Shown here: in pieces, positions 6,052-34,460 of the stretch
How the letters are laid out: each line of letters opens with the position of its first letter
Numbering within the stretch: the first letter of the stretch is position 1
NCBI GenBank assembly: GCA_029706075.1
Contig: JAINUG010000135.1
Location: 1,365,501 to 1,429,500, forward strand
Origin: Aldrovandia affinis
Lineage: Eukaryota; Chordata; Actinopteri; Notacanthiformes; Halosauridae
Direction of reading: 5' to 3'
DNA length: 64,000 nucleotides
Notes under the pieces: generated by a model
Seen by the model: only the letters and a program-made list of their open reading frames with translations
The model's database searches: none
Told to the model about the DNA's origin: nothing
Position numbers and translations under genes: made by a program

Positions 6052-6114
6052 ACAAACACACACACACACACATGCATGCACACACACACACGCACACACG
6101 CACACACACACGCG

Positions 6115-12850: not shown

Positions 12851-14454
12851 GCATTAATACATGGTAAGATAGTCAGCAAAAGAGATCAGTGCCGTAATAC
12901 AGTAATAGACATAATCGTTGGCAGCTGCATACCATACCTGTAACACAGGGAAGGAAAATTACGTTTAAAAATTTTTTTTTTATCCCTTTGCTAAGCTGCC
13001 ATTGTATATGTTAAGCTGAGGTTAATATAGTATATGTCAACTTGGAATGGGCTGACAAGGGAAGCTTTATATACACAACAACCCCAGCAGCTGCCGGCGA
13101 CCCCTAGCAGCCACACACCAGCAAACAAGTCGACTCTAATCTCTCTGAGCATTCGGAACATTCTCTCCCCATTTCGCTGATAAAAATAAGAATTGGTGTC
13201 TTTTTAATCGGCTCTTTCAAGATGTCCTTCTGTCCGCACATCAGCATAGCTTGACCGCATATCACTGCTTCTAATGCTATCAGTCAAGGTGATGTCTTAT
13301 CTATTGGCAAAGTATCAGTGTGCTTTCATTTACACCCACTTCTTTTTATATCTGGTACACCATATCGCCCCAACACAGGTCTGCGAACTGTGTTACGAGC
13401 GCTATGTGGAACACATTTCTATTTTGACTGAGATATCATTCCAGCTACAACACTCCCAGCCAAGTGGAGTTTTGTTTATGAGACCTTAACTCGCATGGTA
13501 ATTGAGTGGTTCATTATCGTTAGTCTGTTTTCTTCAGCCAAGCTCATTGTATTTCTGCGTCCTATCTCAAGGCGGCCAGATGAGACTCTTGCCGAACGAG
13601 TAAATAAGGGGAATGGCATACAGAGGAATGCTTTCGTAATGGTTATGATTCCCTTGTTATCAAACGGAGCTCGTAGACCGTTGGGTCATTTCCATCTCCC
13701 TATTTCCACGACCATTTGAAGCTTCTTCTTCTTCCTTTTTCTTTTCTTTCTTGGTCTTAATTAAGTCTTTGAAATGAAATGTGCTGCGCTGCTCACAGAT
13801 GTAAACTTGAGCGCTCTGCGTGTACAATTCCACGCACGCCAGGATCCAATATCCGCCACCTCTGTAATTATCTCCTCTACCCTCTCTGCTAATCCCTGAT
13901 CTGCACTGTAAATCCAGCACCTGGCTAGTAAAATATTGGAACAACATGTGATCCCCTCATAATACCCATAATAATACCCGTAATAACTCATAATACCTAA
14001 TGATTTATCATTAGGACACTGCGTGTGTATGTGCTGCAGATGATTGGCATGCGGTAGCGAGTCTTGCTGCTCGTTTTCTGACCTCCCGCTATTATTTCTA
14101 TGACAATACATTCAAGAGACATATCTGCAGATTTAAAGTGCCTGTTATATAACAACAACAAAACACTGTACAAATACTTCGCGATAGAACACAAACAGTG
14201 TATATTCTTCAAATCAATGTTAATTGCATTGGCTTTTATTGCACTAAGGGTTTCTGTTATTTTCTACTTTGGTCTCCCCAAATAAAAGGGGTTTAATCTA
14301 TGCCAAAAAACATTATTCAGTTTACTGTAGATAAATGTATTTTTAAGAACTAATAGGCCACAGGTAACTGAAGCTGGAAAGTGCTTCTGATATTATACCT
14401 GGGAAAGGTATTTATGCTGGAACATCGAGGAAGTTTGTCAATTTTCCCACTCTG
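12851..14454. other. Unique sequence, no gene seen
   Basis: Short frames on both strands around 13270-14280 have no recognisable domains. A pyrimidine-rich CTTCTTCTT run lies at 13721-13750, and ATAATACC units repeat near 13960-14000. Confidence 0.4.
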
Positions 14455-14541
14455 TATGGATGTATGTGTGGGCGGGTGTGTCTATCCACAAGAGTGCATA
14501 TGCGTGTGTGTGTGCGTGTGGCCGTGTCTGCGCATACGTGT
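14455..14541. repeat. TG-rich low-complexity tract (insertion site)
   Basis: A GTGTG-rich stretch with CGCATAC words that abuts the first LTR. Similar TG-rich DNA resumes at 34380. The pre-insertion locus was therefore one degenerate TG tract that the retroelement split. Confidence 0.85.
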
Positions 14542-14608
14542 TGTGGCAGCCCAAGGGGCTGCCCAAGAAAATGGCTGCCGGGTCCTTCAACAAATGGGAG
14601 CCGAAAAC

Positions 14609-14624
14609 ACTACATTTCCCAGCA
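14609..14624 (+). promoter_or_regulatory. ZNF143/THAP11-like motif in the LTR (U3)
   Basis: ACTACATTTCCCAGCA matches the core of the remembered ZNF143 consensus ACTACAATTCCCAGCATGCA. It lies about 70 bases into the LTR and 70 bases upstream of the TATA-like box. It recurs at the same place in the other LTRs with little change. Binding is an inference. Confidence 0.5.
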
Positions 14625-14693
14625 GACCACAGTCACACCTGAGCCAAGTGGAAGTAACAGGACTAACGAACAGCTGAAGGCCATTTCAAGGCC

Positions 14694-14701
14694 TATTTAA
14701 A
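14694..14701 (+). promoter_or_regulatory. TATA-like box of LTR 1
   Basis: TATTTAAA sits about 150 bases into the LTR, a usual place for the U3 promoter. The same box is found in each LTR, so the array holds eight potential promoters in tandem. Confidence 0.55.
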
Positions 14702-15002
14702 GGGCTGACTCCCATTACCCATGGAGAGGAGTAGGAACGTGGGTGGAAAGGAGTTGCTGTGTGTTTTTGGAGAGTGAAACTGTGGAAGTCGATTGACCAG
14801 CCAGTATTTGGAAAGTGTTGGAGTGTGTTTGTTTTGTGTAGGAAAATTGGATTGCTTTGGATAACGACTACGGACTGGATTACGGAACTGACTTGGATTT
14901 GGAATTGGAACGGACATTGACAACGAGAAGGATTGCGGACTTTGTGTGTTTGTATTCCCCTGAAGACCCCACCCTTTGTTTTGTGTTGTCTAGAGTTTAT
15001 TT

Positions 15003-15008
15003 ATTAAA
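15003..15008 (+). terminator. Poly(A) signal variant in LTR 1
   Basis: ATTAAA lies about 100 bases before the LTR end and is followed by T/G-rich sequence. This fits the R/U5 boundary region of an LTR. No canonical AATAAA is seen in the LTR. Confidence 0.45.
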
Positions 15009-15110
15009 TTATCATTTTGGTTTTGAATACTGCCTCCTCCTGGTTCTTGAACTTGCCTACGCCCTCTGCAAGGTCCGTGAGTGTCGCCCAACCCCTGGGG
15101 ACACCACATA

Positions 15111-15128
15111 TGGTGGAGAATGCGGGCA
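15111..15128 (+). other. Primer-binding site complementary to tRNA-Ala
   Basis: TGGTGGAGAATGCGGGCA starts two bases after LTR 1. It equals the reverse complement of the 3' end of vertebrate tRNA-Ala (…TGCCCGCATTCTCCA plus CCA) at 18 of 18 bases, from memory of the tRNA sequence. The same site follows LTRs 2-7, for example at 17860, 20599, 23341, 26092, 28857 and 31620. LTR 8 is followed by flanking DNA instead. Confidence 0.88.
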
Positions 15129-17281
15129 GAGGGCATCACATATAGGCAAGAGGAGGTAGTGCAACTGTGAGCAGGATTTAGTTTTTTTTTGTTTGTGATT
15201 TTTGGAAAGCGACACTCCATGATGGAAGGGGACTGGACGATGGATCCAGACATGGAGGCTTGGCTGGAGGCAGAGGGGCACAAGCATCTGTCTAAAGCGC
15301 ACCAACGGTCCCTCAAAGTGTTTTTCCAGGCAAGTCCAGCCCTCAAATGCTCCTTTTTGGCGGGAATGGCGCCCGACGTTGCTGAGGCCATTGATGAAAT
15401 GGAGAGGGTGTTGAGAACCCTGAAGGGACGACACAAAAAAAAAAAAAAAGTCCTAAAGAAGGATGGCCACTCCTGCTCTGTGGTGCCCCTAGGAGAAGAG
15501 AGAAAATGTCCCGGGTAAGCCGCAAAAGCAGCATACTACTGTCGCAGGCAAGTGTGCTGGTTTAGAGGCGGAGTTAGGAGAGGCACAACTTGTGATCAAG
15601 GGCAAAGAGGACGAGATCCAGAAATTGGAGAAATGTTGTCGGGACCAGAAGGAGGACCTGGTGAAGAACCAGAGATGGGCGGCCATGGTGGAGGACCAAT
15701 GGCGAGTCACCCTCCGGGAGGTCCAACAACTGAAAGGTGTCCAGACTGAGCTGTACCGGACGAAAGCTGAGTTGGGGACCTCGGAGGAGCGCCATCTGGT
15801 GGCCATTGGGAGATTGCTGCAGGAGCACACTGACTCCCTGAGAGTGCTGGGAATCATGGCTGGGGAGCTGGAGAAGGACAAAGCATCCCTGGGCGATGAA
15901 GTGAGGCAGGTAGAGTCCCACAACCTGGCGCTCAAAGAGCAGGTAAGAAACCTAACCCAGATGTTGGATAATAAGCATCTGCAGTGTCTGGACAATCAGG
16001 AGTCCCAAGACCAGGCCAAAGAGGAGTATGTCAGGGCCTTGGGGATGTACAGAACAGGCTCGAGCAGAAGGAGGCGGAGCTAAGGAGGGCAGCGGAGACC
16101 CATGCGTCGAAGCAGATAAACTCCAGAGCGAGTGGAGCATGAGAGTGAGGGAAGACGGGAGCTGGAGGCTCAGTTTGAACAGGTGAGGACTCAACTAAAA
16201 GAACAAGTAAGGCAGGTTGTAGAGCTAGAGGGAGTCCGAGAGGATTTTTCAAACCTGAAGAACCTTTCAATAAAACAAAAAGAAAATATTCAGGCTTTGC
16301 AGGAACTTCAGCAAACGACCTATGCAGCACTGCTAATGGAACAAGGAAAAAGTGAAGAGCTTCTGGTCCTGAGGGAAAAAGTGCATGTCTTGGGTGAGAG
16401 GCTGAACCAAAAAGAAGCCCAGCAGCAGGCTACAGGAACTCTTTCGGACGTCCTCCAAATCCAAACAGAAACTTTGCTCCATCTACAGGATGAACTAAAA
16501 GGGTGAGTGTGGAACTTGAGTGTATAAAATGTGTTCCTATCACGAAAGACTCTAGCACGCAGGTGGAGATCTCGCAACCAGTGGAGCTGACCGTCGATGA
16601 TGACCAGACAGAGTTGAATAGTTGGTCCTCAGTCCCCCCTCAGCCTGCCGGATCTTGGAGGGGAACTGGAGGAGCAGGATGCTGGTCTTGTTGAACACCC
16701 AACCCTCTTCTGATGTGGTGAGTCCAACTCCGTCAAAGTTTAAAAGACTGAAAAGAAAAGTGAAGATTAGAGGTTCTCCACTAAAAGAGAAAAGGAAAAC
16801 GGACCAGGCAGATGTGTAGATGGAATGACCGTGGGAAGCGTGTGTGGAGCAGAGATCCAAGAAGGACAAAAAGAAAGACAAGGGAAAATTAACAGGGTTG
16901 TGAAGAACATGTTTTCACTGGATGCTGAATTTGACCCCCTGGAAGCAAAGGGACGTGGAAGAAAATGCTAAAGCGAGGACACTGCATTCGAAACGGCACA
17001 AAGTGTACCGGAGGAGCCATGGAGGGCTGGTGAAGACCAGAGCAGGAGCGGTGACTGCTCCGTCTGTGGAGGCCAGAGCCAGTATACCCATATGGCCACT
17101 TGGTGGCAGTAAGGTGAGCCACCTGCGTCACTCACTAATCTGCCAGATGTTTTTTCAGGCGATGAAGGAGATGGAATCTGGACATTTGACCCTGGCGGAA
17201 AACTGCCTGAGTGGACCTGGAGAGGGGGCCCTCCTGGTGGCTGCTGGACATAGGCCGCTCAGCCCTCCCGAGGTCAGAGCT

Positions 17282-17292
17282 GAGGAGGAGGG
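17282..17292 (+). other. Polypurine tract
   Basis: GAGGAGGAGGG lies two bases before LTR 2, where the plus-strand primer of an LTR element is expected. Equivalent tracts precede LTRs 3-8. Confidence 0.75.
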
Positions 17293-17294
17293 TG

Positions 17295-17857
17295 TGTGGC
17301 AGCCCAAGGGGCTGCCCAAGAAAATGGCTGCGGGTCCTTCAACAAATGGGAGCGAAAACACTACATTCCCAGCAGACCACAGTCACACCTGAGCCAAGTG
17401 GAAGTAACAGGACTAACGAACAGCTGAAGGCCATTTCAAGGCCTATTTAAAGGGCTGACTCCCATTACCCATGGAGAGGAGTAGGAACGTAGGTGGAAAG
17501 GAAGTTGCTGTGTGTTTTTGGAAGTGAAACTGTGGAAGTCGATTGACCAGCCAGTATTTGGAAAGTGTTGAGTGTGTTTGTTTTGTGTAGGAAAATTGGA
17601 TTGCTTTGGATAACGACTACGGACTGGATTACGGAACTGACTTGGATTTGGAATTGGAACGGACATTGACAACGAGAAGGATTTGCGGACTTTGTGTGTT
17701 TGTATTCCCCTGAAGACCCCACCCTTTGTTTTGTGTTGTCTAGAGTTTATTTATTAAATTATCATTTTGGTTTTGAATACTGCCTCCTCCTGGTTCTTGA
17801 ACTTGCCTACGCCCTCTGCAAGGTCCGTGAGTGTCGCCCAACCCTGGGGACACCACA
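17295..17857 (+). repeat. LTR 2
   Basis: 563 bp with the same order of signals as LTR 1, with which it shares a diagnostic base about 120 bases in. Confidence 0.94.
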
Positions 17858-20031
17858 TATGGTGGAGAATGCGGGCAGAGGGCATCACATATAGGCAAGA
17901 GGAGGTAGTGCAACTGTGAGCAGGATTTAGTTTTTGTTTGTGATTTTTTGAAAGCGACACTCCATGATGGAAGGGGACTGGACGATGGATCCAGACATGG
18001 AGAAGCAGCTGGAGGCAGAGGGCACAAGCATCTGTCTAAAGCGCTAACGGTCCCTCTCAAAGTGTTTTCAGGCAAGTCCAGCCCTCAAATGCTCCTTTTG
18101 GCGGGAATGGCGCCCGACGTTGCTGAGGCCATTGATGAAATGGAGAGGGTGTTGAGAACCCTGAAGGGACGACACAAAATAAAAAAGTCCTAAGAAGGAT
18201 GGCCACTCCTGCTCTGTGGTGCCCTGAGGGAGGAGAGAGAAAATGTCCCGGGTAAGCGCAAAAGCAGCATACTACTGTCGCAGAGCAAGTGTGCTGGTTT
18301 AGAGGCGGAGTTAGAGAGGCACAATGATCAAGAGGCAGGGCAAGGGCGAGATCCAGAAATTGGAGAAATGTTGTCGGGACCAGAAGGAGGACCTGGTGAA
18401 GAACCAGAGATGGCGAAGCCATGGTGGAGGACCAATGGCGAGTCACCCTCCCGGGAGGTCCAACAACTGAAAGGTGTCAGACTGAGCTGTACCGGACGAA
18501 AGCTGAGTTGGGGACCTCGGAGGAGCGCCATCTGGTGGCCATTGGGAGATTGCTGCAGGGAGCACACTGACTCCCTGAGAGTGCTGGGAATCATGGCTGG
18601 GGAGCTGGAGAAGGACAAAGCATCCCTGGGCGATGAAGTGAGGCAGGTAGAGTCCCACAACCTGGCGCTCAAAGAGCAGGTAAGAAACCTAACCCAGATG
18701 TTGGATAATAAGCATCTGCAGTGTCTGGACAATCAGGAGTCCCAAGACCAGGCCAAAAGGAGGAGTATGTCAGGGCCTTGGGGATGTACAGAACAGGCTC
18801 GAGCAGAAGGAGGCGGAGCTAAGGAGGGCAGCGGAGACCCATGCGTCCGAAGCAGATAAACTCCAGAGCCGAGTGGAGCATGAGAGTGAGGAAGGCGGGA
18901 GCTGAGGCTCAGTTTGAACAGGTGGGGACTCAACTAAAAGAACAAGTAAGGCAGGTTGTAGAGCTAGAGGGAGTCGAGAGATTTTTCAAACCTGAAGAAC
19001 CTTTCAATAAAACAAAAAGAAAATATTCAGGCTTTGCAGGAACTTCAGCAAACGACCTATGCAGCACTGCTAATGGAACAAGGAAAAGTGAAGAGCTTCT
19101 GGTCCTGAGGGAAAAAGTGCATGTCTTGGGTGAGAGGCTGAACCAAAAAGAAGCCCAGCAGCAGGCTACAGGGAACTCTTTCGACGTCTCCAAATCCAAA
19201 CAGAAACTTTGCTCCATCTACAGGATGAACTAAAAGGGTGAGTGTGGAACTTGAGTGTATAAAATGTGTTCCTATCACGAAGAAAGACTCAGCACGCAGG
19301 TGGAGATCTAGCAACCAGTGGAGCTGACCGTCGATGATGACCAGACAGAGTTGAATAGTTGGTCCTCAGTCCCCTCAGCCTGCCGGATCTTGGAGGGGAA
19401 CTGGAGGAGCAGGATGCTGAGGTCTTGTTGAACACCCAACCCTCTTCTGATGTGATGAGTCCAACTCCATTCAAAGTTTAAAAGACTGAAAAGAAAAGTG
19501 AAGATTAGAGGTTCTCCACTAAAGAGAAAAGGAAAACGGACCAGGCAGATGTGTAGATGGAATGACCGTGGGGAGCGTGTGGAGCAGAGATCCAAGAAGG
19601 ACAAAGAAAGACAAAGGAAAATTAACAGGGTTGTGAAGAACATGTTTTCACTGGATGCTGAATTTGACCCCCTGGAAGCAAAAGGACGTGGAAGAAAATG
19701 CTAAAGCGAGGACACTGCATTCAAAGCGGCACAAAGTGTACCGGAGGAGCCATGGAGGGCTGGTGAAGACCAGAGCAGGAGCGGTGACTGCTCCGTCTGT
19801 GGAGCCCAGAGCCAGTATACCCATATGGCCACTTGGTGGCAGTAAAAGGTGAGCCACCTCGTCACTCACTAATGTCTGCCAGATGTTTTTCAGAAGCGAT
19901 GAAGGAGATGGAATCTGGACATTTGACCCTGGCGGAAAACTGCCTGAGTGGACCTGGAGAGGGGGCCCTCCTGGTGGCTGCTGGACATAGGCCGCTCAGC
20001 CCTCCCGAGGTCAGAGCTGAGGAGGAGGGTG
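17858..20031 (+). mobile_element. Internal region, unit 2
   Basis: 2174 bp, the shortest and most degraded internal region. It has the same layout as the other units (primer-binding site, coiled-coil region, basic region, purine tract). The coding region is heavily broken, with ten or more interruptions. It shares an internal base variant with unit 4. Confidence 0.88.
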
Positions 20032-20596
20032 TGTAGCAGCCAAGGGCTGCCCAAGAAAATGGCTGCGGGTCCTTCAACAAATGGGAGCGAAAACACTACA
20101 TTTCCCAGCAGACCACAGTCACACCTGAGCCAAGTGGAAGTAACGGGACTAACGAACAGCTGAAGGCCATTTCAAGGCCTATTTAAAGGGCTGACTCCCA
20201 TTACCCATGGAGAGGAGTAGGAACGTGGGTGGAAAGGAGTTGCTGTGTGTTTTTGGAGAGTGAAACTGTGGAAGTGATTGACCAGCCAGTATTTGGAAAG
20301 TGTTGAGTGTGTTTGTTTTGTGTAGGGAAAATTGGATTGCTTTGGATAACGACTACGGACTGGATTACGGAACTGACTTGGATTTGGAATTGGAACGGAC
20401 ATTGACAAACGAGAAGGATTGGCGGACTTTGTGTGTTTGTATTCCCCTGAAGACCCCACCCTTTGTTTTGTGTTGTCTAGAGTTTATTTATTAAATTATC
20501 ATTTTGGTTTTGAATACTGCCTCCTCCTGGTTCTTGAACTTGCCTACGCCCTCTGCAAGGTCCGTGGAGTGTCGCCCAACCCTTGGGGACACCACA
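20032..20596 (+). repeat. LTR 3
   Basis: 565 bp. It starts TGTAG, a variant found elsewhere only in LTR 8, the outer right LTR. Confidence 0.94.
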
Positions 20597-22779
20597 TATG
20601 GTGGAGAATGCGGGCAGAGGGCATCACATATAGGCAAGAGGAGGTAGTGCAACTGTGAGCAGGATTTTAGTTTTTTTTTGTTTGTGATTTTTGGAAAGCG
20701 ACACTCCATGATGGAAGGGGACTGGACGATGGATCCAGACATGGAGGCTTGGCTGGAGGCAGAGGGCACAAGCATCTGTCTAAAGCGCACCAACGGTCCC
20801 TCAAAGTGTTTTTCCAGGCAAGTCCAGCCCTCAAATGCTCCTTTTTAGCGGAATGGCGCCCGACGTTGCTGAGGCCATTGATGAAATGGAGAGGGTGTTG
20901 AGAACCCTGGAAGGGACGACACAAAATAAAAAAAGTCCTAAAGAAGGATGGCCACTCCTGCTCTGTGGTGCCCCTAGGGAGAAGAGAGAAAATGTCCCGG
21001 GTAAGCCGCAAAGCAGCATACTACTGTCAGCAGGCAAGTGTGCTGGTTTAGAGGCGGAGTTAGAGAGGCACAACTTGTGATCAAGGGCAAAAGAGACGAA
21101 TCCAGAAATTGGAGAAATGTTGTCGGGACCAGAAGGAGGACCTGGTGAAGAACCAGAGATGGGCGGCCATGGTGGAGGACCAATGGCGAGTCACCCTCCG
21201 GGAGGTCCAACAACTGAAAGGTGTCCAGACTGAGCTGTACCGGACGAAAGCTGAGTTGGGGACCTCGGAGGAGCGCCATCTGGTGGCCATTGGGAGATTG
21301 CTGCAGGAGCACACTGACTCCTGAGAGTGCTGGGAATCATGGCTGGGGAGCTGGAGAAGGACAAAGCATCCCTGGGCGATGAAGTGAGGCAGGTAGAGTC
21401 CCACAACCTGGCGCTCAAAGAGCAGGTAAGAAACCTAACCCAGATGTTGGATAATAAGCATCTGCAGTGTCTGGACAATCAGGAGTCCCAAGACCAGGCC
21501 AAAGAGGAGTATGTCAGGGCCTTGGGGATGTACAGAACAGGCTCGAGCAGAAGGAGGCGGAGCTAAGGAGGGCAGCGGAGACCCATGCGTCCGAAGCAGA
21601 TAAACTCCAGAGCCGAGTGGAGCATGAGAGTGAGGGAAGACGGAGCTGGAGGCTCAGTTTGAACAGGTGAGGACTCAACTAAAAGAACAAGTAAGGCAGG
21701 TTGTAGAGCTAGAGGGAGTCCGAGAGGATTTTTCAAACCTGAAGAACCTTTCAATAAAACAAAAAGAAAATATTCAGGCTTTGCAGGAACTTCAGCAAAC
21801 GACCTATGCAGCACTGCTAATGGAACAAGGAAAAAGTGAAGAGCTTCTGGTCCTGAGGAAAAAGTGCATGTCTTGGGTGAGAGGCTGAACCAAAAAGAAG
21901 CCCAGCAGCAGGCTACAGGGAACTCTTTTCGGACGTCCTCAAACCAAACAGAAACTTTGCTCCATCTACAGGATGAACTAAAAAGGGTGAGTGGAACTTG
22001 AGTGTATAAAATGTGTTCCTATCACGAAAGACTCTAGCACGCAGGTGGAGATCTCGCAACCAGTGGAGCTGACCGTCGATGATGACCAGACAGAGTTGAA
22101 TAGTTGGTCCTCAGTCCCCCTCAGCCTGCCGGATCTTGGAGGGGAACTGGAGGAGCAGGATGCTGAGGTCTTGTTGAACACCCAACCCTCTTCTGATGTG
22201 GTGAGTCCAACTCCGTCAAAGTTTAAAAGACTGAAAAGAAAAGTGAAGATTAGAGGTTCTCCACTAAAGAGAAAAGGAAAACGGACCAGGCAGATGTGTA
22301 GATGGAATGACCGTGGGAAGCGTGTGTGGAGCAGAGATCCAAGAAGGACAAAGAAAGACAAAGGAAAATTAACAGGGTTGTGAAGAACATGTTTTCACTG
22401 GATGCTGAATTTGACCCTGGAAGCAAAAAGGGACGGGAAGAAAATGCTAAAGCGAGGACACTGCATTCAAACGGCACAAAGTGTACCGGAGGAGCCATGG
22501 AGGGCTGGTGAAGACCAGAGCAGGAGCGGTGACTGCTCCGCCTGTGGAGCCCAGAGCCAGTATACCCATATGGCCACTTGGTGGCAGTAAAGGTGAGCCA
22601 CCTCGTCACTCACTAATGTCTGCCAGATGTTTTTTCAGGCGATGAAGGGAGATGGAATCTGGACATTTGACCCTGGCGGAAAACTGCCTGAGTGGACCTG
22701 GAGAGGGGGCCCTCCTGGTGGCTGCTGGACATAGGCCGCTCAGCCCTCCCGAGGTCAGAGCTGAGGGGAGGGGAGGGTG
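20597..22779 (+). mobile_element. Internal region, unit 3
   Basis: 2183 bp with the standard layout. The middle of the coiled-coil region is well kept (for example 21327-21566). The region as a whole is broken, with about five or more interruptions. Confidence 0.88.
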
Positions 22780-23338
22780 TGTGGCAGCCCAAGGGGCTGC
22801 CCAAGAAAATGGCTGCCGGGTCCTTCAACAAATGGGAGCCGAAAACACTACATTTCCCAGCAGACCACAGTCACACCTTGAGCCAAGTGGAAGTAACGGG
22901 ACTAACGAACAGCTGAAGGCCATTTCAAGGCCTATTTAAAGGGCTGACTCCCATTACCCATGGAGAGGAGTAGGAACGGGTGGAAAGGAGTTGCTGTGTG
23001 TTTTTGGAGAGTGAAACTGTGGAAGTCGATTGACCAGCCAGTATTTGGAAAGTGTTGAGTGTGTTTGTTTGTGTAGGAAAATTGGATTGCTTTGGATAAC
23101 GACTACGGACTGGATTACGGAACTGACTTGGATTTGGAATTGGAACGGACATTGACAGAAGGATTGCGGACTTTGTGTGTTTGTATTCCCTGAAGACCCC
23201 ACCCTTTGTTTTGTGTTGTCTAGAGTTTATTTATTAAATTATCATTTTGGTTTTGAATACTGCCTCCTCCTGGTTCTTGAACTTGCCTACGCCCTCTGCA
23301 AGGTCCGTGAGTGTCGCCCAACCCCTGGGGACACCACA
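22780..23338 (+). repeat. LTR 4
   Basis: 559 bp, slightly shorter than the others. TATA-like box and ATTAAA signal are kept. Confidence 0.94.
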
Positions 23339-25522
23339 TATGGTGGAGAATGCGGGCAGAGGGCATCACATATAGGCAAGAGGAGGTAGTGCAACTGTGA
23401 GCAGGATTTAGTTTTTTTTTGTTTGTGATTTTTGGAAAGCGACACTCCATGATGGAAGGGGACTGGACGATGGATCCAGACATGGAGGCTTGGCTGGAGG
23501 CAGAGGGGCACAAGCATCTGTCTAAAGCGCACCAACGGTCCCTCAAAGTGTTTTTCCAGGCAAGTCCAGCCTCAAATGCTCCTTTTACGGGAATGGCGCC
23601 CGACGTTGCTGAGGCCATTGATGAAATGGAGAGGGTGTTGAGAACCCTGAAGGGACGACACAAAATAAAAAAAGTCCTAAAGAAGGATGGCCACTCCTGC
23701 TCTGTGGTGCCCCCTAGGGAGAAGAGAGAAAATGTCCCGGGTAAGCCGCAAAAGCAGCATACTACTGTCGCAGGCAAGTGTGCTGGTTTAGAGGCGGAGT
23801 TAGGAGAGGCACAACTTGTGATCAAGGGCAAAGAGGACGAGATCCAGAAATTGGAGAAATGTTGTCGGGACCAGAAGGAGGACCTGGTGAAGAACCAGAG
23901 ATGGCGGCCATGGTGGAGGACCAATGGCGGAGTCACCCTCGGGAGGTCCAACAACTGAAAGGTGTCCAGACTGAGCTGTACGGACTTTAAAAAGCTGAGT
24001 TGGGGACCTCGGAGGAGCGCCATCTGGTGGCCATTGGGAGATTGCTGCAGGAGCACACTGACTCCCTGAGAGTGCTGGGAATCATGGCTGGGGAGCTGGA
24101 GAAGGACAAAGCATCCCTGGGCGATGAAGTGAGGCAGGTAGAGTCCACAACCTGGCGCTCAAAGAGCAGGTAAGAAACCTAACCCAGATGTTGGATAATA
24201 AGCATCTGCAGTGTCTGGACAATCAGAGTCCCAAGACCAGGCCAAAGAGGAGTATGTCAGGGCCTTGGGGGATGTACAGAACAGGCTCGAGCAGAAGGAG
24301 GCGGAGCTAAGGAGGGCAGCGGAGACCCATGCGTCCAGCAGATAAACTCCAGAGCCGAGTGGAGCATGAGAGTGAGGGAAGACGGGAGCTGGAGGCTCAG
24401 TTTGAACAGGTGAGGACTCAACTAAAAGAACAAGTAAGGCAGGTTGTAGAGCTAGAGGAGTCCGAGAGGATTTTTCAAACCTGAAGAACCTTTCAATAAA
24501 ACAAAAGAAAATATTCAGGCTTTGCAGGAACTTCAGCAAACGACCTATGCAGCACTGCTAATGGAACAAGGAAAAAGTGAAGAGCTTCTGGTCCTGAGGG
24601 AAAAAGTGCATGTCTTGGGTGAGAGGCTGAACCAAAGAAGCCCAGCAGCAGGCTACAGGGAACTCTTTTCGGGACGTCCTCCAAATCCAAACAGAAACTT
24701 TGCTCCATCTACAGGATGAACTAAAAAGGGTGAGTGTGGAACTTGAGTGTATAAAATGTGTTCCTATCACGAAAGACTCTAGCACGCAGGTGGAGATCTC
24801 GCAACCAGTGGAGCTGACCGTCGATGATGACCAGACAGAGTTGAATAGTTGGTCCTCAGTCCCCCTCAGCCTGCCGGATCTTGGAGGGGAACTGGAGGAG
24901 CAGGATGCTGAGGTCTTGTTGAACACCCAACCCTCTTCTGATGTGATGAGTCCAACTCCGTCAAAGTTTAAAAAGACTGAAAAGAAAAGTGAAGATTAGA
25001 GGTTCTCCACTAAAGAGAAAAGGAAAACGGACCAGGCAGATGTGTAGATGGAATGACCGTGGGAAGCGTGTGTGGAGCAGAGATCCAAGAAGGACAAAGA
25101 AAGACAAAGGGAAAATTAACAGGGTTGTGAAGAACATGTTTTCACTGGATGCTGAATTTGACCCCTGGAAGCAAAAGGGACGTGGAAGAAAATGCTAAAG
25201 CGAGGACACTGCATTCAAACGGCACAAAGTGTACCGGAGGAGCCATGGAGGGCTGGTGAAGACCAGAGCAGGAGCGGTGACTGCTCCGTCTGTGGAGCCC
25301 AGAGCCAGTATACCCATATGGCCACTTGGTGGCAGTAAAGGTGAGCCACCTCGTCACTCACTAATGTCTGCCAGATGTTTTTTCAGGCGATGAAGGGAGA
25401 TGGAATCTGGACATTTGACCCTGGCGGAAAACTGCCTGAGTGGACCTGGAGAGGGCCCCTCCTGGTGGCTGCTGGACATAGGCCGCTCAGCCCTCCCGAG
25501 GTCAGAGCTGAGGAGGAGGGTG
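23339..25522 (+). mobile_element. Internal region, unit 4
   Basis: 2184 bp with the standard layout. The 5' part codes for the N-terminal and first coiled-coil stretch. The unit is broken, with about five or more interruptions. Confidence 0.88.
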
Positions 25523-26089
25523 TGTGGCAGCCCAAGGGGCTGCCCAAGAAAATGGCTGCCGGGTCCTTCAACAAATGGGAGCCGAAAAACACTACATTTC
25601 CCAGCAGACCACAGTCACACCTGAGCCAAGTGGAAGTAACGGGACTAACGAACAGCTGAAGGCCATTTCAAGGCCTATTTAAAGGGCTGACTCCCATTAC
25701 CCATGGAGAGGAGTAGGAACGTTGGGTGGAAAGGAGTTGCTGTGTGTTTTTGGAGAGTGAAACTGTGGAAGTCGATTGACCAGCCAGTATTTGGAAAGTG
25801 TTGGAGTGTGTTTGTTTTGTGTAGGAAAATTGGATTGCTTTGGATAACGACTACGGACTGGATTACGGAACTGACTTGGATTTGGAATTGAACGGACATT
25901 GACAACGAGAAGGATTGCGGACTTTGTGTGTTTGTATTCCCCTGAAGACCCCACCCTTTGTTTTGTGTTGTCTAGAGTTTATTTATTAAATTATCATTTT
26001 GGTTTTGAATACTGCCTCCTCCTGGTTCTTGAACTTGCCTACGCCTCTGCAAGGTCCGTGAGTGTCGCCCAACCCCTGGGGACACCACA
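25523..26089 (+). repeat. LTR 5
   Basis: 567 bp, near-identical to LTRs 6 and 7. Confidence 0.95.
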
Positions 26090-28287
26090 TATGGTGGAGA
26101 ATGCGGGCAGAGGGCATCACATATAGGCAAGAGGAGGTAGTGCAACTGTGAGCAGGATTTAGTTTTTTTTTTTGTTTGTGATTTTGGAAAGCGACACTCC
26201 ATGATGGAAGGGGACTGGGACGATGGATCCAGACATGGAGGCTTGGCTGGAGGCAGAGGGGCACAAGCATCTGTCTAAAGCGCACCAACGGTCCCTCAAA
26301 GTGTTTTTCCAGGCAAGTCCAGCCCTCAAATGCTCCTTTTTGGCGGGAATGGCGCCCGGCGTTGCTGAGGCCATTGATGAAATGGAGAGGGTGTTGAGAA
26401 CCCTGAAGGGACGACACAAAATAAAAAAGTCCTAAAGAAGGATAGCCACTCCTGCTCTGTGGTGCCCCTAGGGAGAAGGAGAGAGAAAATGTCCCGGGTA
26501 AGCCGCAAAAGCAGCATACTACTGTCGCAGGCAAGTGTGCTGGTTTAGAGGCGGAGTTAGAGAGGCACAACTTGTGATCAAGGGCAAAGAGGACGAGATC
26601 CAGAAATTGGAGAAATGTTGTCGGGACCAGAAGGAGGACCTGGTGAAGAACCAGAGATGGGCGGCCATGGTGGAGGACCAATGGCGAGTCACCCTCCGGG
26701 AGGTCCAACAACTGAAAGGTGTCCAGACTGAGCTGTACCGGACGAAAGCTGAGTTGGGGACCTCGGAGGAGCGCCATCTGGTGGCCATTGGGAGATTGCT
26801 GCAGGAGCACACTGACTCCCTGAGAGTGCTGGGAATCATGGCTGGGGAGCTGGAGAAGGACAAAGCATCCCTGGGCGATGAAGTGAGGCAGGTAGAGTCC
26901 CACAACCTGGCGCTCAAAGAGCAGGTAAGAAACCTAACCCAGATGTTGGATAATAAGCATCTGCAGTGTCTGGACAATCAGGAGTCCCAAGACCAGGCCA
27001 AAGAGGAGTATGTCAGGGCCTTGGGGGATGTACAGAACAGGCTCGAGCAGAAGGAGGCGGAGCTAAGGAGGGCAGCGGAGACCCATGCGTCCGAAGCAGA
27101 TAAACTCCAGAGCCGAGTGGAGCATGAGAGTGAGGGAAGACGGGAGCTGGAGGCTCAGTTTGAACAGGTGAGGACTCAACTAAAAGAACAAGTAAGGCAG
27201 GTTGTAGAGCTAGAGGGAGTCCGAGAGGATTTTTCAAACCTGAAGAACCTTTCAATAAAACAAAAAGAAAATATTCAGGCTTTGCAGGAACTTCAGCAAA
27301 CGACCTATGCAGCACTGCTAATGGAACAAGGAAAAAGTGAAGAGCTTCTGGTCCTGAGGGAAAAAGTGCATGTCTTGGGTGAGAGAGGCTGAACAAAAAA
27401 GAAGCCCAGCAGCAGGCTACAGGGAACTCTTTTCGGACGTCCTCCAAATCCAAACAGAAACTTTGCTCCATCTACAGGATGAACTAAAAAGGGTGAGTGT
27501 GGAACTTGAGTGTATAAAATGTGTTCCTATCACGAAAGACTCTAGCACGCAGGTGGAGATCTCGCAACCAGTGGAGCTGACCGTCGATGATGACCAGACA
27601 GAGTTGAATAGTTGGTCCTCAGTCCCCCTCAGCCTGCCGGATCTTGGAGGGGAACTGGAGGAGCAGGATGCTGAGGTCTTGTTGAACACCCAACCCTCTT
27701 CTGATGTGGTGAGTCCAACTCCGTCAAAGTTTAAAAGACTGAAAAGAAAAGTGAAGATTAGAGGTTCTCCACTAAAGAGAAAAGGAAAACGGACCAGGCA
27801 GATGTGTAGATGGAATGACCGTGGGAAGCGTGTGTGGAGCAGAGATCCAAGAAGGACAAAGAAAGACAAAGGGAAAATTAACAGGGTTGAAGAAGAACAT
27901 GTTTTCACTGGATGCTGAATTTGACCCCTGGAAGCAAAAGGGACGTGGAAGAAAATGCTAAAGCGAGGACACTGCATTCCGAAACGGCACAAAGTGTACC
28001 GGAGGAGCCATGGAGGGCTGGTGAAGACCAGAGCAGGAGCGGTGACTGCTCCGTCTGTGGAGCCCAGAGCCAGTATACCCATATGGCCACTTGGTGGCAG
28101 TAAAGGTGAGCCACCTGCGTCACTCACTAATGTCTGCCAGATGTTTTTTCAGGCGATGAAGGGAGATGGAATCTGGACATTTGACCTGGCGGAAAACTGC
28201 CTGAGTGGACCTGGAGAGGGGGCCCTCCTGGTGGCTGCTGGACATAGGCCGCTCAGCCCTCCCGAGGTCAGAGCTGAGGAGGAGGTG
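26090..28287 (+). mobile_element. Internal region, unit 5
   Basis: 2198 bp. A 285-codon stretch of the coiled-coil region is read at 26535-27392, rich in Glu, Gln, Lys and Leu at heptad spacing. The unit is broken in roughly three or four places. Confidence 0.9.
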
Positions 28288-28854
28288 TGTGGCAGCCCAA
28301 GGGGCTGCCCAAGAAAAATGGCTGCCGGGTCCTTCAACAAATGGGAGCCGAAAACACTACATTTCCCAGCAGACCACAGTCACACCTGAGCCAAGTGGAA
28401 GTAACGGGACTAACGAACAGCTGAAGGCCATTTCAAGGCCTATTTAAAGGGCTGACTCCCATTACCCATGGAGAGGAGTAGGAACGTGGGTGGAAAGGAG
28501 TTGCTGTGTGTTTTTGGAGAGTGAAACTGTGGAAGTCGATTGACCAGCCAGTATTTGGAAAGTGTTGGAGTGTGTTTGTTTTGTGTAGGAAAATTGGATT
28601 GCTTTGGATAACGACTACGGACTGGATTACGGAACTGACTTGGATTTGGAATTGAACGGACATTGACAACGAGAAGGATTGCGGACTTTGTGTGTTTGTA
28701 TTCCCCTGAAGACCCCACCCTTTGTTTTGTGTTGTCTAGAGTTTATTTATTAAATTATCATTTTGGTTTTGAATACTGCCTCCTCCTGGTTCTTGAACTT
28801 GCCTACGCCCTCTGCAAGGTCCGTGAGTGTCGCCCAACCCCTGGGGACACCACA
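28288..28854 (+). repeat. LTR 6
   Basis: 567 bp with all LTR signals in place. Confidence 0.95.
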
Positions 28855-31050
28855 TATGGTGGAGAATGCGGGCAGAGGGCATCACATATAGGCAAGAGGA
28901 GGTAGTGCAACTGTGAGCAGGATTTAGTTTTTTTTTGTTTGTGATTTTTGGAAAGCGACACTCCATGATGGAAGGGGACTGGACGATGGATCCAGACATG
29001 GAGGCTTGGCTGGAGGCAGAGGGGCACAAGCATCTGTCTAAAGCGCACCAACGGTCCCTCAAAGTGTTTTTCCAGGCAAGTCCAGCCCTCAAATGCTCCT
29101 TTTTGGCGGGAATGGCGCCCGACGTTGCTGAGGCCATTGATGAAATGGAGAGGGTGTTGAGAACCCTGAAGGGACGACACAAAATAAAAAAAGTCCTAAA
29201 GAAGGATGGCCACTCCTGCTCTGTGGTGCCCCCTAGGGAGAAGAGAGAAAATGTCCCGGGTAAGCCGCAAAAGCAGCATACTACTGTCGCAGGCAAGTGT
29301 GCTGGTTTAGAGGCGGAGTTAGGAGAGGCACAACTTGTGATCAAGGGCAAAGAGGACGAGATCCAGAAATTGGAGAAATGTTGTCGGGACCAGAAGGAGG
29401 ACCTGGTGAAGAACCAGAGATGGGCGGCCATGGTGGAGGACCAATGGCGAGTCACCCTCCGGGAGGTCCAACAACTGAAAGGTGTCCAGACTGAGCTGTA
29501 CCGGACGAAAGCTGAGTTGGGGACCTCGGAGGAGCGCCATCTGGTGGCCATTGGGAGATTGCTGCAGGAGCACACTGACTCCCTGAGAGTGCTGGGAATC
29601 ATGGCTGGGGAGCTGGAGAAGGACAAAGCATCCCTGGGCGATGAAGTGAGGCAGGTAGAGTCCCACAACCTGGCGCTCAAAGAGCAGGTAAGAAACCTAA
29701 CCCAGATGTTGGATAATAAGCATCTGCAGTGTCTGGACAATCAGGAGTCCCAAGACCAGGCCAAAGAGGAGTATGTCAGGGCCTTGGGGGATGTACAGAA
29801 CAGGCTCGAGCAGAAGGAGGCGGAGCTAAGGAGGGCAGCGGAGACCCATGCGTCGAAGCAGATAAACTCCAGAGGCGAGTGGAGCATGAGAGTGAGGGAA
29901 GACGGGAGCTGGAGGCTCAGTTTGAACAGGTGAGGACTCAACTAAAAGAACAAGTAAGGCAGGTTGTAGAGCTAGAGGGAGTCCGAGAGGATTTTTCAAA
30001 CCTGAAGAACCTTTCAATAAAACAAAAAGAAAATATTCAGGCTTTGCAGGAACTTCAGCAAACGACCTATGCAGCACTGCTAATGGAACAAGGAAAAAGT
30101 GAAGAGCTTCTGGTCCTGAGGAAAAAGTGCATGTCTTGGGTGAGAGGCTGAACCAAAAAGAAGCCCAGCAGCAGGCTACAGGGAACTCTTTTCGGGACGT
30201 CCTCCAAATCCAAACAGAAACTTTGCTCCATCTACAGGATGAACTAAAAAGGGTGAGTGTGGAACTTGAGTGTATAAAATGTGTTCCTATCACGAAAGAC
30301 TCTAGCACGCAGGTGGAGATCTCGCAACCAGTGGAGCTGACCGTCGATGATGACCAGACAGAGTTGAATAGTTGGTCCTCAGTCCCCCTCAGCCTGCCGG
30401 ATCTTGGAGGGGAACTGGAGGAGCAGGATGCTGAGGTCTTGTTGAACACCCAACCCTCTTCTGATGTGGTGAGTCCAACTCCGTCAAAGTTTAAAAGACT
30501 GAAAAGAAAAGTGAAGATTAGAGGTTCTCCACTAAAGAGAAAAGGAAAACGGACCAGGCAGATGTGTAGATGGAATGACCGTGGGAAGCGTGTGTGGAGC
30601 AGAGATCCAAGAAGGACAAAGAAAGACAAAGGGAAAATTAACAGGGTTGTGAAGAACATGTTTTCACTGGATGCTGAATTTGACCCCCTGGAAGCAAAAG
30701 GGACGTGGAAGAAAATGCTAAAGCGAGGACACTGCATTCCGAAACGGCACAAAGTGTACCGGAGGAGCCATGGAGGGCTGGTGAAGACCAGAGCAGGAGC
30801 GGTGACTGCTCCGTCTGTGGAGCCCAGAGCCAGTATACCCATATGGCCACTTGGTGGCAGTAAAGGTGAGCCACCTGCGTCACTCACTAATGTCTGCCAG
30901 ATGTTTTTTCAGGCGATGAAGGGAGATGGAATCTGGACATTTGACCCTGGCGGAAAACTGCCTGAGTGGACCTGGAGAGGGGGGCCCTCCTGGTGGCTGC
31001 TGGACATAGGCCGCTCAGCCCTCCCGAGGTCAGAGCTGAGGAGGAGGGTG
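28855..31050 (+). mobile_element. Internal region, unit 6 (one of the best-kept)
   Basis: 2196 bp. The 5' part encodes a short leader segment (MEGDWTMDPDMEAWLEAEGH) and then a long coiled coil with recurring Leu at heptad positions and many Glu, Gln and Lys. The 3' part encodes a final helical stretch, a Ser/Pro/Asp-rich linker and a strongly basic segment (for example KFKRLKRKVKIRGSPLKRK). The basic segment could bind nucleic acid, as the C-terminus of a Gag does, but no CCHC knuckle is visible. Only about two interruptions are present. Confidence 0.9.
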
Positions 31051-31617
31051 TGTGGCAGCCCAAGGGGCTGCCCAAGAAAATGGCTGCCGGGTCCTTCAAC
31101 AAATGGGAGCCGAAAACACTACATTTCCCAGCAGACCACAGTCACACCTGAGCCAAGTGGAAGTAACGGGACTAACGAACAGCTGAAGGCCATTTCAAGG
31201 CCTATTTAAAGGGCTGACTCCCATTACCCATGGAGAGGAGTAGGAACGTGGGTGGAAAGGAGTTGCTGTGTGTTTTTGGAGAGTGAAACTGTGGAAGTCG
31301 ATTGACCAGCCAGTATTTGGAAAGTGTTGGAGTGTGTTTGTTTTGTGTAGGAAAATTGGATTGCTTTGGATAACGACTACGGACTGGATTACGGAACTGA
31401 CTTGGATTTGGAATTGGAACGGACATTGACAACGAGAAGGATTGCGGACTTTGTGTGTTTGTATTCCCCTGAAGACCCCACCCTTTGTTTTGTGTTGTCT
31501 AGAGTTTATTTATTAAATTATCATTTTGGTTTTGAATACTGCCTCCTCCTGGTTCTTGAACTTGCCTACGCCCTCTGCAAGGTCCGTGAGTGTCGCCCAA
31601 CCCCTGGGGACACCACA
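31051..31617 (+). repeat. LTR 7
   Basis: 567 bp with all LTR signals in place. Confidence 0.95.
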
Positions 31618-33812
31618 TATGGTGGAGAATGCGGGCAGAGGGCATCACATATAGGCAAGAGGAGGTAGTGCAACTGTGAGCAGGATTTAGTTTTTTTTTG
31701 TTTGTGATTTTTGAAAGCGACACTCCATGATGGAAGGGGACTGGACGATGGATCCAGACATGGAGGCTTGGCTGGAGGCAGAGGGCACAAGCATCTGTCT
31801 AAAGCGCACCAACGGTCCCTCAAAGTGTTTTTCCAGGCAAGTCCAGCCCTCAAATGCTCCTTTTGGCGGGAATGGCGCCCGACGTTGCTGAGGCCATTGA
31901 TGAAATGGAGAGGGTGTTGAGAACCCTGAAGGGACGACACAAAATAAAAAAAAGTCCTAAAGAAGGATGGCCACTCCTGCTCTGTGGTGCCCCCTAGGGA
32001 GAAGAGAGAAAATGTCCCGGGTAAGCCGCAAAAGCAGCATACTACTGTCGCAGGCAAGTGTGCTGGTTTAGAGGCGGAGTTAGGAGAGGCACAACTTGTG
32101 ATCAAGGGCAAAGAGGACGAGATCCAGAAATTGGAGAAATGTTGTCGGGACCAGAAGGAGGACCTGGTGAAGAACCAGAGATGGGCGGCCATGGTGGAGG
32201 ACCAATGGCGAGTCACCCTCCGGGAGGTCCAACAACTGAAAGGTGTCCAGACTGAGCTGTACCGGACGAAAGCTGAGTTGGGGACCTCGGAGGAGCGCCA
32301 TCTGGTGGCCATTGGGAGATTGCTGCAGGAGCACACTGACTCCCTGAGAGTGCTGGGAATCATGGCTGGGGAGCTGGAGAAGGACAAAGCATCCCTGGGC
32401 GATGAAGTGAGGCAGGTAGAGTCCCACAACCTGGCGCTCAAAGAGCAGGTAAGAAACCTAACCCAGATGTTGGATAATAAGCATCTGCAGTGTCTGGACA
32501 ATCAGGAGTCCCAAGACCAGGCCAAAGAGGAGTATGTCAGGGCCTTGGGGGATGTACAGAACAGGCTCGAGCAGAAGGAGGCGGAGCTAAGGAGGGCAGC
32601 GGAGACCCATGCGTCCGAAGCAGATAAACTCCAGAGCCGAGTGGAGCATGAGAGTGAGGGAAGACGGGAGCTGGAGGCTCAGTTTGAACAGGTGAGGACT
32701 CAACTAAAAGAACAAGTAAGGCAGGTTGTAGAGCTAGAGGGAGTCCGAGAGGATTTTCAAACCTGAAGAACCTTTCAATAAAACAAAAAGAAAATATTCA
32801 GGCTTTGCAGGAACTTCAGCAAACGACCTATGCAGCACTGCTAATGGAACAAGGAAAAAGTGAAGAGCTTCTGGTCCTGAGGGAAAAAGTGCATGTCTTG
32901 GGTGAGAGGCTGAACCAAAAAGAAGCCCAGCAGCAGGCTACAGGGAACTCTTTTCGGGACGTCCTCCAAATCCAAACAGAAACTTTGCTCCATCTACAGG
33001 ATGAACTAAAAAGGGTGAGTGTGGAACTTGAGTGTATAAAATGTGTTCCTATCACGAAAGACTCTAGCACGCAGGTGGAGATCTCGCAACCAGTGGAGCT
33101 GACCGTCGATGATGACCAGACAGAGTTGAATAGTTGGTCCTCAGTCCCCCTCAGCCTGCCGGATCTTGGAGGGGAACTGGAGGAGCAGGATGCTGAGGTC
33201 TTGTTGAACACCCAACCCTCTTCTGATGTGGTGAGTCCAACTCCGTCAAAGTTTAAAAGACTGAAAAGAAAAGTGAAGATTAGAGGTTCTCCACTAAAGA
33301 GAAAAGGAAAACGGACCAGGCAGATGTGTAGATGGAATGACCGTGGGAAGCGTGTGTGGAGCAGAGATCCAAGAAGGACAAAGAAAGACAAAGGGAAAAT
33401 TAACAGGGTTGTGAAGAACATGTTTTCACTGGATGCTGAATTTGACCCCCTGGAAGCAAAAGGGACGTGGAAGAAAATGCTAAAGCGAGGACACTGCATT
33501 CCGAAACGGCACAAAGTGTACCGGAGGAGCCATGGAGGGCTGGTGAAGACCAGAGCAGGAGCGGTGACTGCTCCGTCTGTGGAGCCCAGAGCCAGTATAC
33601 CCATATGGCCACTTGGTGGCAGTAAAGGTGAGCCACCTGCGTCACTCACTAATGTCTGCCAGATGTTTTTTCAGGCGATGAAGGGAGATGGAATCTGGAC
33701 ATTTGACCCTGGCGGAAAACTGCCTGAGTGGACCTGGAGAGGGGGGCCCTCCTGGTGGCTGCTGGACATAGGCCGCTCAGCCCTCCCGAGGTCAGAGCTG
33801 AGGAGGAGGGTG
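31618..33812 (+). mobile_element. Internal region, unit 7
   Basis: 2195 bp, nearly the same sequence as unit 6. Long stretches of both the coiled-coil region and the basic region are open, with about two or three interruptions. The open frame at the 3' end runs on into LTR 8, so no stop closely precedes the purine tract. Confidence 0.9.
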
Positions 33813-34379
33813 TGTAGCAGCCCAAGGGGCTGCCCAAGAAAATGGCTGCCGGGTCCTTCAACAAATGGGAGCCGAAAACACTACATTTCCCAGCAGACCA
33901 CAGTCACACCTGAGCCAAGTGGAAGTAACGGGACTAACGAACAGCTGAAGGCCATTTCAAGGCCTATTTAAAGGGCTGACTCCCATTACCCATGGAGAGG
34001 AGTAGGAACGTGGGTGGAAAGGAGTTGCTGTGTGTTTTTGGAGAGTGAAACTGTGGAAGTCGATTGACCAGCCAGTATTTGGAAAGTGTTGGAGTGTGTT
34101 TGTTTTGTGTAGGAAAATTGGATTGCTTTGGATAACGACTACGGACTGGATTACGGAACTGACTTGGATTTGGAATTGGAACGGACATTGACAACGAGAA
34201 GGATTGCGGACTTTGTGTGTTTGTATTCCCCTGAAGACCCCACCCTTTGTTTTGTGTTGTCTAGAGTTTATTTATTAAATTATCATTTTGGTTTTGAATA
34301 CTGCCTCCTCCTGGTTCTTGAACTTGCCTACGCCCTCTGCAAGGTCCGTGAGTGTCGCCCAACCCCTGGGGACACCACA
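33813..34379 (+). repeat. LTR 8 (outer right LTR)
   Basis: 567 bp. It differs from LTR 1 at two single positions and has no length change relative to it. It ends CCACA and is followed by GTGT. Confidence 0.95.
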
Positions 34380-34460
34380 GTGTATATATGCGTTTGTGTG
34401 TCTCAACGTGCAAGTGTGTGTGTCTATGCACAAGTGTGTATATATATGTGCATCTCCACC
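34380..34460. repeat. TG/TA-rich low-complexity tract
   Basis: Continues the TG-rich DNA seen left of the array (14455-14541), with TATATATG words. It begins with the right copy of the candidate target duplication. Confidence 0.85.

What the first reader, a model, noticed from the sequence alone, without database searches (positions are those of the whole stretch)
14542..34379. A 20 kb LTR-retrotransposon 'ladder': eight LTRs sharing seven internal regions
Seen directly: period 2737-2765 bp, same orientation, one LTR between neighbouring internal regions. Single insertions normally have two LTRs or collapse to one. An n+1 LTR to n internal ladder of this length is unusual in a vertebrate and implies repeated unequal LTR-LTR exchange or integration of a concatemer. 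It also places eight promoter-bearing LTRs in tandem.
Basis: partly seen in the sequence, partly recalled or inferred. Interest (0 to 1): 0.88.

Follow-up and report, generated by a model that had tools for sequence, protein, structure and literature searches.

The report
Eight-LTR retrotransposon ladder in fish
A mobile DNA element in a fish genome has been copied head to tail, most likely by misaligned exchange between its repeated ends; it is a long, clear example of a known process, and the same element family has done this at several other places in the same genome.

Summary
[quoted passage not shown] Differences between units are mainly small indels, fewest at the array's edges, as expected of poorly polished long reads, so the count 8:7 is plausible but unverified. 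The ladder is not alone: internal-LTR-internal probes found interior LTRs at 12 further loci of this fish genome; five that I read look like clean 3- or 5-LTR ladders. The 5-LTR ladder (C935) decides the mechanism for that locus: its outer LTRs differ at 7 of 583 sites, three of its internals at 1-3 of about 2050, and interior LTRs are hybrids, 3'-LTR type on the left, 5'-LTR type on the right. That is the footprint of unequal LTR-LTR exchange after one insertion. The window array shows such sharing at two sites only. Ladders with n+1 LTRs are in print for plants, bivalves, zebrafish, kangaroo and human HERV-K. New member of a known kind.

The parts
14538..14541 (.). 5' copy of the 4-bp target-site duplication GTGT
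14542..15108 (+). LTR1 (5' outer LTR), TGTGG...CCACA
15111..15128 (+). primer-binding site of unit 1 (18 of 18 to the 3' end of this genome's tRNA-Ala plus CCA); the same at 17860, 20599, 23341, 26092, 28857, 31620
15109..17294 (+). internal region 1, ending in a purine tract (GAGGAGGAGGGTG)
17295..17857 (+). LTR2 (interior; shares the derived base at LTR position 118 with LTR1)
17858..20031 (+). internal region 2 (unit 2 has the most indels of units 1-6)
20032..20596 (+). LTR3 (interior; shares the derived base at LTR position 4 with LTR8)
20597..22779 (+). internal region 3
22780..23338 (+). LTR4 (interior)
23339..25522 (+). internal region 4
25523..26089 (+). LTR5 (interior)
26090..28287 (+). 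internal region 5
28288..28854 (+). LTR6 (interior)
28855..31050 (+). internal region 6; holds a stop-free stretch of 338 codons from 28917
31051..31617 (+). LTR7 (interior)
31618..33812 (+). internal region 7; holds a stop-free stretch of 375 codons from 32688
33813..34379 (+). LTR8 (3' outer LTR)
34380..34383 (.). 3' copy of the 4-bp target-site duplication GTGT

Best explanation
One copy of a non-autonomous LTR retrotransposon inserted once (4-bp target duplication). Later, recombination out of register between its 3' LTR on one chromatid and its 5' LTR (or another LTR) on the sister or homologue added whole LTR-internal units, step by step, giving eight LTRs and seven internals; the reciprocal or intrachromatid outcome is the solo LTR, which is common in this family. 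Shown: the anatomy, one duplication around the array, near-identity of units, sister ladders, and hybrid LTRs at the sister ladder C935. Inferred: that the window's ladder grew the same way, the number and order of steps, and the exact present copy number.
For: Single 4-bp duplication round the array. Mean within-array LTR divergence 0.3% against 7-11% to 22 outside LTRs; the eight array LTRs form one supported clade, 100/99, so amplification was local. Sister ladder C935 (5 LTRs, 4 internals): outer LTRs differ at 7/583 sites while three of its four internals differ at 1/2063, 1/2051 and 3/2053 (Fisher p = 0.00016 to 0.0016); LTR2 and LTR3 carry LTR5's derived base at 541 and LTR1's at 578, LTR4 carries LTR1's derived bases at 346, 357 and 398 but the 3'-LTR (ancestral) state at 31 and 260, the left-3'/right-5' polarity that exchange predicts. 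Outer LTRs are identical at integration (established knowledge), so these sites changed afterwards. In the window, LTR2 shares LTR1's derived base (position 118) and LTR3 shares LTR8's (position 4). Over the six ladders examined, an interior LTR shares the derived base of one outer LTR at 9 of 19 sites where outer LTRs differ. 16 of the 22 outside LTRs that I read (of 33 listed) are solo LTRs with matching 4-bp flanks.
Against: In the window only two sites are informative, and both interior LTRs concerned lie in the poorly polished part. LTR1-LTR8 divergence (2/567) is not significantly above internal divergence (2/2176, p = 0.19; 1/2192, p = 0.11); nor is it in C1580 (3/577 vs 6/2093) or C1001 (1/581 vs 4/2091). 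Ten of the 19 outer-difference sites are private to one outer LTR or ambiguous and say nothing; two of the nine (357 in C935, 391 in C2500) are less clearly polarised. C935's LTR4 also carries assembly-type indels. No second haplotype or other individual was available. Six of the 16 solo-LTR duplications, and three of the five clean sister ladders' (ATAT), lie in TA-rich flanks where a 4-bp match is cheap.
Confidence: 0.72

Rival explanations
1. A tandem (multi-unit) cDNA, made from a read-through transcript or a one-LTR circle, was integrated at once by integrase, and the copies have only mutated since.
For: One target duplication with exact LTR ends round the whole array; LTR4-LTR7 of the window differ from each other by no substitution; proposed for plants in PMC11899658 (Discussion read).
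Against: Does not predict that interior LTRs share derived bases with one outer LTR (9 of 19 sites in six ladders), nor C935's outer LTRs being 8 to 25 times more diverged than its internals. A concatemer followed by gene conversion among LTRs is harder to exclude.
Confidence: 0.15
2. The ladder is partly an assembly artefact: the true locus has a different number of units (possibly only one or two), inflated or reshuffled when noisy long reads were assembled.
For: 182 indel events against 28 substitutions between units 1-6 and unit 7; indels are densest in unit 2 and absent between the two outer LTRs, so the inside seems to lack uniquely placed read support; units of ladders C1580 and C1001 are indel-rich too (10 substitutions to 18 indels, 5 to 21).
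Against: Interior LTRs recur at 12 other loci; two solo-LTR pairs used as yardsticks have 7 substitutions to 1 indel and 4 to 3, so the assembly is not indel-ridden everywhere (a 2-LTR element near a contig end has 4 to 10); units carry distinct substitutions.
Confidence: 0.1
3. Several independent insertions, or a segmental duplication that carried host DNA, built the array.
For: Such an event exists in this genome: C380 (L039) duplicated half an internal, an LTR and about 600 bp of host flank; C213 has an AB-AB arrangement.
Against: No host base lies between any of the window's LTRs and internals; the junctions sit at PBS and purine tract in all seven units, with small indels in two purine tracts; only one target duplication exists.
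Confidence: 0.02

Closest known systems
Tandem LTR-retrotransposon structures of rice and other plants (PMC11899658; abstract, background, results and discussion read)
   Same: Alternating LTRs and internals, starting and ending with an LTR, one target duplication round the whole, mostly recent, sharing interior LTRs.
   Different: Plant elements, mostly Gypsy, with coding domains; the two loci described in detail have 3 LTRs; here a fish non-autonomous element with 8 LTRs. There the mechanism could not be decided.
biv-TRIM arrays of bivalves, TDRx_I(x-1) (PMC6934838; passages read)
   Same: n+1 ladder notation and structure; solo, canonical and tandem copies coexist; recombination proposed.
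   Different: Longer arrays there (up to TDR58_I57) of smaller elements.
Helenus family LTR-11_DR of zebrafish (PMC10886601; passages read)
   Same: Non-autonomous fish LTR element, 4-bp duplications, tandem arrays observed.
   Different: Helenus LTRs hold a tRNA-like sequence; none is found in the window's LTRs (ARAGORN) or in unit 1 (Rfam); the internal here is 2.2 kb with a conserved frame.
Tandem provirus HERV-K(HML-2) K108 / HML-2.HOM at 7p22.1 (PMC4425911 and PMC3228705; passages read)
   Same: [quoted passage not shown] provirus, tandem repeat and solo LTR are all listed for the locus.
   Different: Two copies, proviral; here 8 LTRs and no pol.
Kangaroo KERV centromeric tandems (as cited in PMC11899658; the KERV paper itself not read)
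   Same: Tandem LTR elements sharing LTRs in a vertebrate, recombination between LTRs proposed.
   Different: Centromeric endogenous retrovirus; the present array's position relative to the centromere is unknown.
Cassandra long tandem arrays in plants (PMC7215508; passages read)
   Same: LTR-internal ladders, up to 13 LTRs and 12 internals by PCR; multi-unit transcripts reported.
   Different: Cassandra LTRs carry 5S rRNA sequence and the internals are small.

Membership tests
LTR retrotransposon | Direct terminal repeats TG...CA | tested here: met
   8 of 8 LTRs; TGTGGC (TGTAGC in LTR3 and LTR8) ... CCACA
LTR retrotransposon | Primer-binding site complementary to a host tRNA just inside the 5' LTR | tested here: met
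   7 of 7 units; 18 of 18 to tRNA-Ala 3' end plus CCA; such tRNA genes found in the same genome
LTR retrotransposon | Purine tract before the 3' LTR and short target duplication | tested here: met
   GAGGAGGAGGGTG before LTR2-LTR8, with small indels in two; GTGT duplication; 4-bp matches at five other clean ladders
Autonomous LTR retrotransposon or endogenous retrovirus | Encoded protease, reverse transcriptase, integrase | tested here: not met
   2.2-kb internals; no Pfam family over its cut-off in 5 stop-free pieces of units 5-7; no partner element identified, and hardly searched for
Tandem LTR-RT array (n+1 LTRs to n internals) | Alternation of LTRs and internals, LTR at both ends, one target duplication | tested here: met
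TRIM | Very small element without coding capacity (definition recalled) | tested here: not met
   2.75-kb unit with a frame conserved between loci, dN/dS 0.33-0.65 in 15 of 16 comparisons, the other without a match
Helenus | tRNA-like sequence in the LTR | tested here: not met
   ARAGORN finds none in 14542-34379; Rfam none in 14400-17400 at E up to 1
Satellite DNA | Long array of units, expanded independently of the element's ends | tested here: inconclusive
   Seven units with exact element ends; at most an early stage

The most novel reading that the evidence does not exclude
A non-autonomous, pol-less fish LTR family whose only product is a coiled-coil-like protein of unknown kinship repeatedly converts single insertions into ladders, by unequal LTR-LTR exchange frequent enough that solo, 2-, 3-, 5- and 8-LTR states coexist in one genome; the 8-LTR locus would be a proto-satellite caught growing, and would be expected to vary in unit number between individuals and to give multi-unit transcripts.
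Probability: 0.3. Interest if true: 0.6.

Novelty: new member of a known kind. Interest (0 to 1): 0.42.

Why it matters
How tandem LTR arrays arise, by concatemer insertion or by exchange after insertion, was left open in the plant study that I read (PMC11899658). A genome that holds solo, 2-, 3-, 5- and 8-LTR states of one young family lets the question be tested by reading diagnostic sites in interior LTRs; at one locus the answer is exchange. It also shows a likely birth route of long-period satellites and a class of loci that may vary in copy number and that under-polished assemblies can misrepresent.

Tried and rejected
Nested or independent insertions: rejected, no host DNA between units. 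Helenus/TRIM membership: rejected on features. Known protein domain in the internal frame: none convincing (the hits are below cut-off or at E 0.18 and above). Autonomous partner: not found, but hardly searched for: the frames downstream of one LTR-plus-PBS copy (L016) were listed and not scanned against a library. Empty site or second haplotype: the left flank has 1 match in the genome, itself; the right flank matches elsewhere only in short stretches of a dispersed repeat. A mafft alignment of units gave clusters of apparent substitutions that a lenient pairwise alignment resolved into indels; counts are from the latter. The Drosophila double-insertion paper was not held.

Full report
1. The observation. 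Window 14542-34379 is an exact ladder of eight direct LTRs and seven internal regions. Unit lengths are 2753, 2737, 2748, 2743, 2765, 2763 and 2762. Each of LTR1-LTR7 is followed after two bases by an intact 18-base primer-binding site; each of LTR2-LTR8 is preceded by the same purine tract, with small indels in two; LTR8 runs straight into host DNA. The outer ends carry the same four bases, GTGT. The left flank (1001 bp) is unique in the genome and the right flank is unique apart from short stretches of a dispersed repeat.

2. What genome. The window lies in a 1.22-Gb assembly of 2576 contigs, the longest seen reaching beyond 22 Mb. Pfam's FISNA domain (recalled as fish-specific) has 65 matches there and none in 14 control genomes of kinds not told, so I take it for a ray-finned fish; the species is unknown to me.

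3. What element. The primer site matches, 18 of 18, the 3' end (with CCA) of tRNA-Ala genes of the same genome: a 19-base pattern has 17 matches, its backward control 0, and the two fetched examples are called tRNA-Ala by ARAGORN, anticodons tgc and agc. The internal region is 2.2 kb. Its + strand frame is split, differently in each unit, into stop-free stretches of which the longest are 130 to 375 codons; long stop-free stretches also occur on the - strand (up to 360 codons), so openness alone proves little. Five + strand pieces from units 5-7 have no Pfam match over the cut-off; two pieces have no convincing solved relative. Against eight other loci the + frame shows dN/dS of 0.33 to 0.65 in 15 of 16 comparisons; the other had no match. 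Out-of-frame stretches inside matches probably push the ratio up; some matches contain stops (6 in one L036 comparison, 1 each in four others). The - strand frames were not tested. I infer that the + frame was under purifying selection while the family spread. No pol was found. [quoted passage not shown] superfamily not settled.

4. Quality of the array's sequence. Compared with unit 7, units 1-6 have 25, 59, 41, 28, 20 and 9 indel events but only 3, 11, 4, 4, 5 and 1 substitutions. LTR1 and LTR8, next to unique flanks, differ by no indel and two substitutions, whereas LTR2, LTR3 and LTR4 differ from the other LTRs by 6 to 14 indels. Two solo-LTR pairs elsewhere show 7 substitutions to 1 indel and 4 to 3; the 2-LTR element C2397, near a contig end, shows 4 to 10; units of ladders C1580 and C1001 show 10 to 18 and 5 to 21. 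The simplest reading is that polishing failed inside near-identical tandem repeats. Using unit 7 as yardstick makes the right-hand decline partly built in; the LTR-only comparison does not depend on it. Hence copy number and fine sequence of units 2-5 should not be trusted to the base.

5. The family elsewhere. With one LTR as query, 41 matches are listed (40 of 5208 candidates scored): eight in the array at 98-100%, the other 33 at 91% or less. I read 22 of these 33: 16 are solo LTRs with matching 4-bp flanks (6 of them in TA tracts), two form a 2-LTR element, three are 5' or 3' ends of other copies, and one has no matching flanks. The eight array LTRs form one clade (100/99) on a stem of 0.034 changes per site, next to the C2397 pair and one C1800 copy.

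6. Other ladders. Probes made of about 400 bp of internal 3' end, an LTR and 400 bp of internal 5' end reveal interior LTRs. Five such searches (40 of 5393 to 6064 candidates scored in each) show matches that run from position 107 or less to position 1121 or more at 13 loci: the window and C147, C1580, C1001, C935, C2378, C1680, C2245, C213, C2500, C2466, C1646, C2066. I read seven of these 12, three of them (C213, C2500, C2378) only at their LTRs. C935 has 5 LTRs and 4 internals (ATAT flanks); C1580 and C1001 have 3 and 2 (ATAT in a TA tract; CCAG); C2500 and C2378 have 3 LTRs by their flanks (ATAT in a TA tract; ATAC). C147 is a 2-internal ladder with both outer LTRs truncated and no duplication seen. 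C213 is an AB-AB arrangement with 22 to 26 substitutions between neighbouring LTRs, not a clean ladder. A further locus, C380, is a segmental duplication that carries host flank. Five (C1680, C2245, C2466, C1646, C2066) are known from probe matches alone.

7. The mechanism test. The two outer LTRs of an insertion are identical when it integrates. If a concatemer integrates, internals should since have diverged as much as the outer LTRs, and interior LTRs should not share new bases with one outer LTR. In C935 the outer LTRs differ at 7 of 583 sites and three of the four internals at 1/2063, 1/2051 and 3/2053 (the fourth spans two fetched loci and was left out): at the LTR rate about 25 differences would be expected (Fisher p 0.00016 to 0.0016). 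Polarised by 27 other LTRs of the family, LTR1 and LTR4 share derived bases at 346, 357 (outgroup 22 to 4) and 398; LTR2, LTR3 and LTR5 share one at 541; LTR1-LTR4 share one at 578. LTR2 and LTR3 are thus 3'-LTR type on the left and 5'-LTR type on the right, and LTR4 changes from the 3'-LTR (ancestral) state to LTR1 type between 260 and 346. Unequal exchange between a 3' and a 5' LTR makes exactly such LTRs. In the window, position 118 (LTR1 and LTR2) and position 4 (LTR3 and LTR8) are shared derived sites; C2378 has one (524) and C2500 one (391, less clearly polarised, outgroup 25 to 2). In all, 9 of 19 outer-difference sites in six ladders are shared in this way; 10 are private or ambiguous. 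The window's own outer-LTR versus internal divergence does not reach significance (p 0.11 to 0.19), nor does that of C1580 or C1001.

8. Comparison with print. Ladders of this form are reported for rice and other plants (PMC11899658, main sections read), bivalve TRIMs up to TDR58_I57 (PMC6934838, passages), Cassandra (PMC7215508, passages), zebrafish LTR-11_DR, where tandem arrays are mentioned without sizes in the passages I saw (PMC10886601), HERV-K 7p22.1 (PMC4425911, PMC3228705, passages) and, as cited in PMC11899658, kangaroo KERV. As far as titles and abstract openings show, my eight literature searches listed no paper on this fish family or on an 8-LTR ladder in a fish; that is no proof of absence. 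The finding is a new, long, recent member of a known kind, with better than usual evidence for the mechanism in a sister locus.

Noticed in passing
G000 C147, L036 1412-6009: Two-internal ladder whose outer LTRs are both cut inside the LTR (at 117 and about 300) with no target duplication seen; could be an insertion of circular DNA or a trimmed ladder.
   Followed up: partly
G000 C380, L039 2239-6643: Tandem duplication of half an internal, an LTR and about 600 bp of host flank, 99.5% identical; a different duplication route in the same family.
   Followed up: partly
L028 4544-5724 (C1878): Two solo LTRs 32 bp apart in a TA tract, 0.7% diverged.
   Followed up: no
window 28917-29930 and 32688-33812: Conserved coiled-coil-like frame of unknown kinship in an LTR element without detected pol, dN/dS below 1 between loci.
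   Followed up: partly
G000 C1578:849-7994 and C1372:1677-12247: tRNA-Ala gene ends recur at steps of about 1.4-1.5 kb or more, suggesting tandem tRNA gene arrays.
   Followed up: no
window 57278-57352: ARAGORN tRNA-Ala call (anticodon ggc) with a 3' end unlike the primer tRNA; perhaps a tRNA-derived repeat.
   Followed up: no
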